From Halorussus ruber (GTDB lineage Archaea > Halobacteriota > Halobacteria > Halobacteriales > Haladaptataceae), in the NCBI RefSeq assembly GCF_004765785.1, contig NZ_SBIT01000020.1, forward strand, positions 1-55,837: a DNA stretch of 55,837 bases. Direction: 5' to 3'. The position numbers were made by a program, and so were the translations under genes. Shown one piece after another: positions 19,217 through 48,070 of this stretch. The notes under the pieces are model-generated. The model was not told the origin of the DNA. It worked only from the letters and a program-made list of their open reading frames with translations, and did not search any database. The number at the start of each line of letters is the position of its first letter. The first letter of the stretch is position 1.

Positions 19217-19302
19217 CGTTCGGAGTGAGGAGTCGGGAGGATAAAATCCCTCCGGGGTCGCGCTCGGGCCATCTTCCACCAGCGAACGCTCGATGAAACA
19301 GT

Positions 19303-19346
19303 CCACCGACAAACGCCCGGCCGACCACCGACAAACGCCCGGCCGA
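19303..19346 (+). repeat. 22-bp direct repeat, two units
   Basis: A 22-bp unit containing CCGACAAACGCCCGGCCGA occurs twice in tandem (19303-19324 and 19325-19346), just upstream of the hairpin element at 19366. It lies between two minus-strand genes and is not coding. Confidence 0.8.
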
Positions 19347-19365
19347 CCACTCCACCACGGAGTGG

Positions 19366-19481
19366 ATGAAGGGGCCGACCGGTCGCGTTCAGTTTAGTCG
19401 TCTCCGGCGGCCCTATCTTCGCGGGCGGTGCCGAGAGCGAAGATATCCGCCGGAACGACCGCGAGCGGTCGGGGGCTTCAA
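19366..19481 (+). ncRNA. Structured hairpin element, copy 1 of 3
   Basis: A two-arm hairpin. Outer arms are GAAGGGGCCGACCGGTCGCG and a matching CGGTCGGGGGCTTC. The inner stem is TCCGGCGG / CCGCCGGA, then an internal loop of CCC opposite T, then TATCTTCGC / GCGAAGATA closing a short loop. Two other copies (41918-42033, 47541-47653) share the CCC-TATC / GATA-T core and the trailing CGACCGCGA...GGGCTTC, but change the flanking stem on both sides so that pairing is kept. That pattern indicates selection on the folded form. Strand is assigned from the conserved core. It lies just 3' of the FAH-family gene. Confidence 0.5.
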
Positions 19482-19534
19482 GAAGCCTTCTTCGACACCT
19501 TGGTTGTAGCTCCCCTCGCAGTACCTTTGATTCC

Positions 19535-41917: not shown

Positions 41918-42033
41918 GAAAGGGCGAGCGCGGTTCGCATTTACGTGGTCGTCTCAGCGACCCCTATCGGAGGCGAATCGAAGGTGAGCCGGAGATATGT
42001 CGCTGAGCGACCGCGAACCGCGCGAGGGCTTTC
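41918..42033 (+). ncRNA. Structured hairpin element, copy 2 of 3
   Basis: Outer arms GAAAGGGCGAGCGCGGTTCGC and GCGAACCGCGCGAGGGCTTTC (arms of about 20 bp with small slips). The inner stem CTCAGCGAC / GTCGCTGAG is followed by the CCC opposite T loop and the TATC / GATA helix shared with copies 1 and 3. The apical part is longer than in copy 1. The region 41798-42094 contains no gene. It sits 120 bp upstream of the tRNA-binding gene start and 60 bp from repeat copy B. Confidence 0.55.
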
Positions 42034-42094: not shown

Positions 42095-42359
42095 AACAGG
42101 AAGCTAGCTTCAGGCGTGAGCCGAGGCGTCTCCCGCAACCGCCCCGCACTGCGACCGCACCTCGTCCTCCCCAGCCTCCTCCTTCGCTCCTTGCAGTCGC
42201 TCAGTCGTCCACCGTCAGAGGCAAGCTCTGACGAGCCTTGCCTCGCTACGCTCGGCAAGACCTCGCGCGACGGTGGTGTGGCACGGAGGCACCGGCGGAC
42301 AACCCGCGTCCGCCGAGCAGTCACTCGCTACGCTCGTGACGACCGCGCCAGCGCGCGCC
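42095..42359 (+). repeat. Palindrome-rich interspersed repeat, copy B
   Basis: Starts AACAGGAAGCTAGCTTCAGG and shares CCGCCCCGCACTGCGACCGC and CTCCCCAGCCTC with copies A and C. The last 80 bp (42280-42359) are identical to the complement of 46785-46864 in copy C. Internal palindromes include GTCACTCGC/GCTCGTGAC and GGCGGAC...GTCCGCC. It ends 87 bp from the stop of the beta-helix gene at 42447, on its 3' side; the spacer is AT-rich. Confidence 0.8.
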
Positions 42360-47441: not shown

Positions 47442-48070
47442 ACGTCACCTCCGACAGCGAGGAGGTTAACGAATGGGGCCGAAGTTCGAGATGAATCGTG
47501 GTTTTGCGTTCGGGGAGAGTCGTGACTGTAAACGCTTCTCGAAGCCCCCACGCGGTCGCGGTCGCTCCTCGACATATCCGACGGACGTGGTTGCGACGGA
47601 TAGGGGTCGAGGAGCGACCAAGCCTCCGGCGCGATCGCGCGGCCCCTTCATCCCTCCCTGTCAGTTAGTGAGTCGAGCGTTTACCGGTGGTTCGTAGCGC
47701 CGAGCGCCGCCATGGCGACTTGCCAGTCGAGTGCCCCCATCGGTCGGACGTTCCACCGAGCGCATCCGCGGCGGCTGGTCGGCCTGCCATCGCAGAGGAG
47801 TACCGCCGGTCGCCCGCCAGCGCGTATCTCGAACCCCGGCGAGAGAGCAAAGAAACCCAACCCGTTGTTTAAGCAATATTTTTGCTCGGGAAAGAATAAA
47901 TTATATTTCCCTGTACCCACGCGAACGGCGTGTAAGCGACTCCTATCGGGGGTTACCCGCCTGCTGTCTTTCTGGTACGTTCGGTCTGCGAGAACGTAGC
48001 GAACTCCAGAATTCACGCAAGAGAGTCCATAACAAAGGGAAATACCGGAATACGGTGGGGTAGTAGCGTA
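47442..48070. other. 629-bp intergenic region
   Basis: The first half holds hairpin copy 3 (47541-47653). The second half contains no gene that I can support. An AT-rich stretch (47870-47905, with AATATTTTTGC and AATAAATTATATTTCC) and the last 100 bp, up to the ATG at 48071, probably hold the promoter of the large PKD protein gene. Confidence 0.5.
47541..47653 (-). ncRNA. Structured hairpin element, copy 3 of 3
   Basis: Read on the minus strand: GAAGGGGCCGCGCGATCGCG, then the inner stem CTCCTCGAC / GTCGAGGAG, the CCC opposite T loop, TATCCG / CGGATA closing a 16-base loop, then CGACCGCGACCGCG and GGGGGCTTC. Flanking-stem pairs differ from both other copies on both strands while pairing is kept. 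It lies 100 bp upstream of the 99-residue gene. Confidence 0.55.

What the first reader, a model, noticed from the sequence alone, without database searches (positions are those of the whole stretch)
19366..19481. A three-copy hairpin family with compensatory stem changes
Seen: copies at 19366-19481 (+), 41918-42033 (+) and 47541-47653 (-) share a CCC opposite T internal loop beside a TATC/GATA helix and a trailing CGACCGCGA...GGGCTTC. The adjacent stem is TCCGGCGG/CCGCCGGA, CTCAGCGAC/GTCGCTGAG and CTCCTCGAC/GTCGAGGAG respectively: both strands change and pairing is kept. Inference: selection on a fold, either as RNA or as single-stranded DNA. The asymmetric 3:1 loop next to an invariant helix resembles a protein-binding site. 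I believe similar sequences occur in other haloarchaea, but I cannot name a described family.
Basis: partly seen in the sequence, partly recalled or inferred. Interest (0 to 1): 0.85.

Follow-up and report, generated by a model that had tools for sequence, protein, structure and literature searches.

The report
Haloarchaeal dispersed structured DNA hairpin repeat
The three hairpins belong to a family of about 110-base repeats, roughly 150 in this one genome and present in many salt-loving archaea, whose fold is kept while the sequence changes; the pattern of change and the presence or absence of copies point to a mobile piece of DNA with unknown machinery rather than to an ordinary RNA gene.

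Summary
Across genomes 31 of 38 base pairs change on both sides, while the unpaired bases (CNC opposite T; GGG opposite GGG) are nearly invariant.

The constraint looks DNA-level, not RNA-level. G-U pairs are 1-2% of pairs (11% in SRP RNA of related genomes), and double-sided changes outnumber one-sided ones seven- to tenfold. At one locus the apical hairpin is inverted between two species; at another the interior is swapped for an unrelated hairpin with the same ends.

The elements are intergenic, vary from 0 to about 149 copies within the genus, and differ in presence at syntenic sites (one clean 170-bp empty site). IS200-type transposase is missing from six copy-rich genomes; reverse transcriptase from all 17 tested.

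Best reading: a transposase-free mobile hairpin repeat, nearest to the SMR/PATE elements of Haloquadratum, but with fixed architecture and variable sequence. The mobilising machinery and any host function are not shown.

The parts
19368..19479 (+). Copy 1, full hairpin, variant A ends (GAAGGGG...GGGGCTTC)
   Evidence: read directly; folds at z -4.8; model match 104.4 bits
19411..19417 (+). Copy 1: CCC side of the 3:1 internal loop (19411-19413) and TATC strand of the conserved helix (19414-19417)
   Evidence: loop bases near-invariant across genomes
19442..19446 (+). Copy 1: GATA strand (19442-19445) and the single T opposite CCC (19446)
41918..42032 (+). Copy 2, full hairpin, variant B ends (GAAAGGGCGAGCG...CGCGAGGGCTTT)
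   Evidence: z -4.8; model match 86.0 bits
41962..41968 (+). Copy 2: CCC (41962-41964) and TATC (41965-41968)
41994..41998 (+). Copy 2: GATA and the single T opposite CCC
47541..47649 (-). Copy 3, full hairpin, variant A ends
   Evidence: z -3.0; model match 103.3 bits
47599..47605 (-). Copy 3: CCC (47605-47603) and TATC (47602-47599), read on the minus strand
19260..19367 (+). 5' leader of copy 1: repeated short units of the CGCCCGGCCGACCACC type ending in GGAGTGGAT before the hairpin; such leaders recur before many copies
   Evidence: seen directly in 52 aligned upstream stretches; membership in the mobile unit not proven
19480..19515 (+). 3' trailer of copy 1 (AAGAAGCCTTCTTCGACACC...), weakly conserved for about 30 nt after the hairpin in many copies, sometimes tandemly repeated with the 3' arm
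   Evidence: positional information over 52 copies

Best explanation
The copies are members of a dispersed, transposase-free mobile DNA repeat of haloarchaea whose conserved unit is a folded DNA shape rather than a sequence. Shown: high and very variable copy number, intergenic placement, presence/absence at syntenic sites, a fold kept by double-sided changes with almost no G-U, near-invariant unpaired bases, one in-place inversion of the apical hairpin and one en bloc swap of the interior. Inferred: the element folds in the cell (as single-stranded DNA during replication, or as a cruciform), a protein reads the CNC/T and GGG/GGG loops and the shared ends TGAAAGGG...GGGCTTTC, and this recognition lets copies spread, flip and exchange interiors. 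Which protein does this is unknown; by presence/absence neither a Y1 (IS200/IS605) transposase nor a reverse transcriptase is generally required.
For: 149 copies here, 0 to >=63 in congeners, 112/391 genomes of the order. Covariation far above controls; loops conserved where helices vary. G-U 1.3-2.4% against 11% in SRP RNA, and one-sided:double-sided changes 29:297 and 39:270 against 119:193. Clean 170-bp empty site in G108, in-place inversion of the apical hairpin (G098 against G148) and interior swap at another locus (G098 against G108). Copy 2 of the window has no counterpart at the syntenic site of G014, G008, G016 and G005. 51 of 53 copies intergenic, both orientations. No RT in 17 genomes; no Y1 transposase in six genomes with 29 to >=63 copies.
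Against: No new insertion was observed and no target duplication or exact border could be fixed; a clean loss is as compatible with one empty site as a gain. Haloarcula species share one syntenic copy, which fits long-term retention. Folding in vivo and a binding protein are inferred. The low G-U rate rests on one RNA control with a predicted structure. Recent-looking near-identical copies are few (best pair in this genome 97.6%, median 65%), so most copies are old.
Confidence: 0.6

Rival explanations
1. A multicopy structured non-coding RNA (regulatory or protein-binding) whose fold is selected at the RNA level.
For: Elaborate fold with internal loops, bulge and optional extra hairpins, tandem G-A motifs in variant B, strong covariation; one syntenic copy kept in at least six Haloarcula species.
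Against: G-U is nearly absent compared with SRP RNA, and no commoner than A-C. Copy number runs from 0 to about 149 inside one genus. The apical hairpin is reverse-complemented in place in one species pair. No Rfam match. No consistent orientation to genes.
Confidence: 0.17
2. A non-autonomous element moved in trans by an IS200/IS605-type (Y1, RAYT-like) transposase acting on single-stranded DNA, as proposed for REPs and PATEs; the enzyme has since been lost from some genomes.
For: Hairpin-based, intergenic, head-to-head pairs occur; seven Y1 matches in the own genome; one Y1 locus has GGGTGGGATGAAG in its upstream palindrome, the same string as the element's 5' edge (L371).
Against: Y1 is absent from G001, G002, G003, G010, G011 and G016, which have 29 to >=63 copies. 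The shared leader palindrome is not above shuffled sequence. The other three Y1 loci looked at lack the motif.
Confidence: 0.13
3. Old repeats kept palindromic only by mutation: template switching between the arms (quasi-palindrome correction) and gene conversion produce the compensated changes without selection.
For: Low G-U, en bloc arm changes, inversion of an apical module and nested hairpin inserts are expected from template switching.
Against: Such correction would erase the internal loops, yet CNC/T and GGG/GGG are the best-kept positions; the architecture persists across families of the order at 62% median identity.
Confidence: 0.08

Closest known systems
Small mobile repeats type A (SMR-A: HqIRS42, HqIRS43, HqIRS55) of Haloquadratum walsbyi (PMC3119063)
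   Same: Haloarchaeal, about 110 bp, prominent inverted repeats at the ends, no coding capacity, tens of copies, strain-specific presence, same position may hold a different repeat or the same one reversed, mobilisation unexplained.
   Different: SMR copies of one type are reported as commonly >95% identical and insert into palindromes of PATEs and IS605 elements; here median identity is 65%, the helices covary throughout, and no such target preference was shown.
Palindrome-associated transposable elements (PATEs) of Haloquadratum (PMC3119063)
   Same: Transposase-free, palindromic, no target duplication, sequence-heterogeneous, present where Y1 transposase is missing or broken.
   Different: PATEs lack terminal inverted repeats and have palindromes near both ends related to IS605 elements; here the whole element is one long hairpin and an IS605 relation was not confirmed.
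REP / REPIN elements of bacteria (GTAG and CGTC families; PMC3733652, PMC3116915)
   Same: High-copy intergenic palindromes with subfamilies that carry alternative complementary stems, and head-to-head pairs.
   Different: REPs are 20-40 bp with GTAG or CGTC tags and G-T pairs are often seen in their stems; here about 110 bp, other ends, G-T rare, and Y1 transposase absent from several copy-rich genomes.

Membership tests
SMR-A (Haloquadratum small mobile repeats) | about 110 bp, too short to code | tested here: met
   hairpins mostly 102-127 nt; nested variants up to about 230 nt
SMR-A (Haloquadratum small mobile repeats) | prominent inverted terminal repeats | tested here: met
   foot and outer helix pair in nearly all copies
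SMR-A (Haloquadratum small mobile repeats) | no target duplication | tested here: inconclusive
   none visible at the one clean empty site, but flanks there are about 89% identical and the borders uncertain
SMR-A (Haloquadratum small mobile repeats) | high sequence conservation within a type (commonly >95%) | tested here: not met
   median pairwise identity 65% in one genome, nearest neighbour median 88%
SMR-A (Haloquadratum small mobile repeats) | insertion into near-terminal palindromes of PATEs or IS605-type transposons | tested here: inconclusive
   one shared 13-mer with a Y1 locus; leader palindromes not above shuffled sequence
SMR-A (Haloquadratum small mobile repeats) | sequence similarity to HqIRS42, 43 or 55 | not tested
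   those sequences were not to hand
PATE | no terminal inverted repeats | tested here: not met
   the foot and outer helix are terminal inverted repeats
PATE | palindromes related to IS605-type ends | tested here: inconclusive
REP/REPIN moved by RAYT | 20-40 bp hairpin with GTAG or CGTC tag | tested here: not met
   size and ends differ
REP/REPIN moved by RAYT | Y1 transposase of the RAYT kind in the genome | tested here: not met
   PF01797 absent in 8 of 17 Halorussus genomes, six of them copy-rich
Structured non-coding RNA | covarying fold with G-U accepted as a pair | tested here: not met
   covariation met but G-U 1.3-2.4% against 11% in SRP RNA
Structured non-coding RNA | transcription | not testable with these tools
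   no expression data
Structured non-coding RNA | match to a described RNA family | tested here: not met
   no Rfam match at gathering score in the window
Retrotransposed (SINE-like) element | reverse transcriptase in the genome | tested here: not met
   PF00078 absent in all 17 Halorussus genomes searched; control genomes rang

The most novel reading that the evidence does not exclude
A class of mobile DNA in which the replicating and recognised unit is a DNA shape: ends and loop bases are fixed, every helix is freely rewritten, interiors are exchanged or flipped in place, and spread needs neither a Y1 transposase nor a reverse transcriptase but an unidentified hairpin-reading system of haloarchaea.
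Probability: 0.3. Interest if true: 0.85.

Novelty: new variant of a known kind. Interest (0 to 1): 0.62.

Why it matters
How the transposase-free repeats of haloarchaea move was called enigmatic when SMRs were described (PMC3119063). This family gives a tractable handle: a copy-rich genus with relatives that have none, a fold with a few near-invariant unpaired bases that can be mutated, and a clear prediction (a protein that binds the folded DNA). It also shows that strong covariation between genes of an archaeon need not mean RNA: the G-U rate can separate the two, which is a caution for covariance-based discovery of non-coding RNAs.

Tried and rejected
Rfam: nothing. Strict pattern in viral contigs: nothing. 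The strict pattern over the genome collection returned mostly chance matches in 257 Gb and helped only to name Halorussus. A gene shared between tail-to-tail pairs (spacing about 670-710 bp): the genes between are unrelated. IS200/RAYT and reverse transcriptase as general movers. A leader palindrome shared with IS605 ends: no better than shuffled sequence. A fixed gene orientation: mixed (23 >E>, 15 <E<, 8 <E>, 6 >E<). Plain duplication: excluded by 65% median identity with kept pairing. One attempt to tabulate loop bases by regular expression was out of register (end) and was replaced by alignment columns. Resemblance of GTGGGATTGAAAG to haloarchaeal CRISPR repeat ends was recalled from memory and not tested.

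Full report
OBSERVATION. The three copies were read directly. The strict core pattern occurs three times in the window, with 0.00 expected in shuffles. All three fold far below their shuffles (-69.0, -64.6, -66.1 kcal/mol). The full unit is a hairpin of 109-115 nt here: a GAAG/CTTC or GAAAG/CTTTC foot, a GGG/GGG internal loop (in variant B, GG/GG plus tandem G-A), an outer helix, a one-sided bulge, an inner stem, CCC opposite T, TATC/GATA, and a variable apical hairpin.

COPY NUMBER AND RANGE. The strict pattern has 49 hits in the own genome and none for the reversed control. A covariance model (from 19 copies) finds 149 matches at E<=0.01 in 4.32 Mb; 150 candidates were scored, so this may be a lower bound. 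The genus is taken to be Halorussus from named records with the same pattern or element. In the order, 112 of 391 genomes (35 of 87 genera) match at E<=1e-6. In a phylum-level sample of 295 genomes, all 13 with a match belong to the same order. Plasmids of Haloarcula, Halorussus and Haladaptatus carry matches with no listed gene under them (gene tables there are incomplete).

FOLD UNDER CONSTRAINT. In 54 rows, mostly one per genome, 95.2% of cells pair, 31 of 38 pairs show changes on both sides, and 286 cells are double-sided (shuffle mean 70.7; 0 of 500 shuffles reach any measure; slid partners give at most 45). Four of the rows are reverse-strand matches of copies already present; leaving them out (50 rows) gives 31 pairs and 270 cells. 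The alignment was fitted to the structure, which inflates the paired percentage, but the MAFFT seed alignment shows the same in weaker form. The unpaired bases are the best-kept part: C 50/50 and C 48/50 around a free base, T 49/50 opposite, GGG and GGG 44-49/50. The model rewards these bases, so the set is biased towards them; a search by ends and outer stem alone also recovered mainly the CNC/TAT type (100 of 148 distinct elements).

DNA OR RNA. In the element, G-U is 1.3% (66 distinct copies of this genome) and 2.4% (cross-genome) of standard pairs; one-sided changes number 29 and 39, double-sided 297 and 270. In SRP RNA from 30 related genomes G-U is 11.2%, one-sided 119 and double-sided 193. 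G-U is about as common as A-C in the element's helices (30:35 and 37:25) but 320:25 in SRP. Caveats: SRP is one control with a predicted structure, and many of the A-C cells probably sit at the pair next to the bulge (12 unpaired cells there). Taken together this favours constraint on DNA, where G-T and A-C are mirror mismatches. Pure template-switch homogenisation would also give low G-U but should erase the loops.

MOBILITY. At the window's copy 2 the syntenic intergenic site in G014, G008, G016 and G005 has no such element, but intergenic DNA is too diverged to show borders. In another genus (g26, unnamed) there is a clean case: G098 and G148 hold an element that G108 lacks, 170 bp, with both flanks aligned. 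A 366-bp stretch of G098, two head-to-head elements with 3' ends outward, is missing from G136; a short CGAAAAGCCCC remains in G136, so a deletion is also possible. At L252/L377 the flanks match at 89% and 94% while the interior is the R1 hairpin in G098 and an unrelated hairpin with the same ends in G108. At L387/L393 the outer arms are alike and the apical hairpin is reverse-complemented between G098 and G148. Within this genome extra hairpins sit inside the loop, the junction or the bulge of several copies. Copies are intergenic in 51 of 53 cases by a simple codon-bias gene caller, with mixed orientation.

MACHINERY. Y1 transposase (PF01797) is absent from G001, G002, G003, G010, G011 and G016 despite 29 to >=63 copies; reverse transcriptase (PF00078) is absent from all 17 genomes. 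So neither explains the family in general, although past activity of a lost enzyme cannot be excluded.

COMPARISON. Haloquadratum SMR-A elements are about 110 bp, have inverted terminal repeats, cause no target duplications, reach 54 copies, and their mobilisation is 'enigmatic'; the same paper lists SwitchRepeats, where one position holds different repeats or the same one reversed (PMC3119063). The present family works like these but fails one reported trait (>95% identity within a type) and others were inconclusive, so it is filed as a variant of the kind, not a member. REPs differ in size, tags and frequent G-T pairs (PMC3733652).

VERDICT. A real, widespread, structure-conserved and probably mobile DNA hairpin family. 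Shown: copies, fold, covariation, loop conservation, presence/absence, flip and swap. Inferred: folding in the cell, protein recognition, mobility mechanism. Not addressed: expression and function for the host.

Noticed in passing
L377 12248-12344, L093, L095, L101, L250, L252, L391: A second hairpin class with the same ends (TGAAAGGGGC...GGGGCTTT) but another interior, around GACGAAG-CGACGYAAGCACCGCAG...GAGGAGCRCAGCGAG; often on the opposite strand next to the first class.
   Followed up: partly
L001, L015, L026 (junction); L016, L025, L366, L367 (apical loop); L028 (bulge): A foreign hairpin module, CGGAAGACGCGGTTTGTCTTCCGG with a neighbour, is inserted inside loops of the element at three different places, leaving the fold intact.
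   Followed up: partly
upstream of most variant A copies, e.g. window 19260-19367, L063, L086: Arrays of short units of the CGCTCGGTGGAACAACCACCGG type precede the hairpin, up to several in a row.
   Followed up: no
L031, L008, L033 downstream of the element: The 3' arm plus a 36-60 nt trailer is tandemly repeated, each repeat matching the element's own arm variant.
   Followed up: no
L066, L069, L081, L082, L083 upstream; L046, L050, L054: A recurrent stretch GGAGGTTGGGGAGGCGTGAGGC (or ...GGCTGGGGAGG-TGTGGC) lies further 5' of many copies, also in other genera.
   Followed up: no
window 42098-42270: Another repetitive stretch beside copy 2 that matches several congeners at 74-87% (query 1899-2162).
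   Followed up: no
L052, L240-L244, L218: In at least six genomes of genus g21 (probably Haloarcula) one copy is syntenic next to a conserved structured-looking 5' stretch; the L243 neighbour gene encodes a protein that looks like an OB-fold/zinc-finger DNA-binding protein.
   Followed up: partly
G148:C1 1993719-1995663 and 2026637-2028334 against L247: The two flanks of a G098 element lie about 31 kb apart and inverted in G148, an inversion with a breakpoint at the element.
   Followed up: no
L248 and L254, about 130-330 bp after the element: The element lies beside a tRNA-like sequence with a partial duplicate of it, as left by an integrative element.
   Followed up: no
L371 about 1350-1380: The palindrome upstream of a Y1 transposase gene contains GGGTGGGATGAAG, the same string as the 5' edge of variant A elements.
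   Followed up: partly
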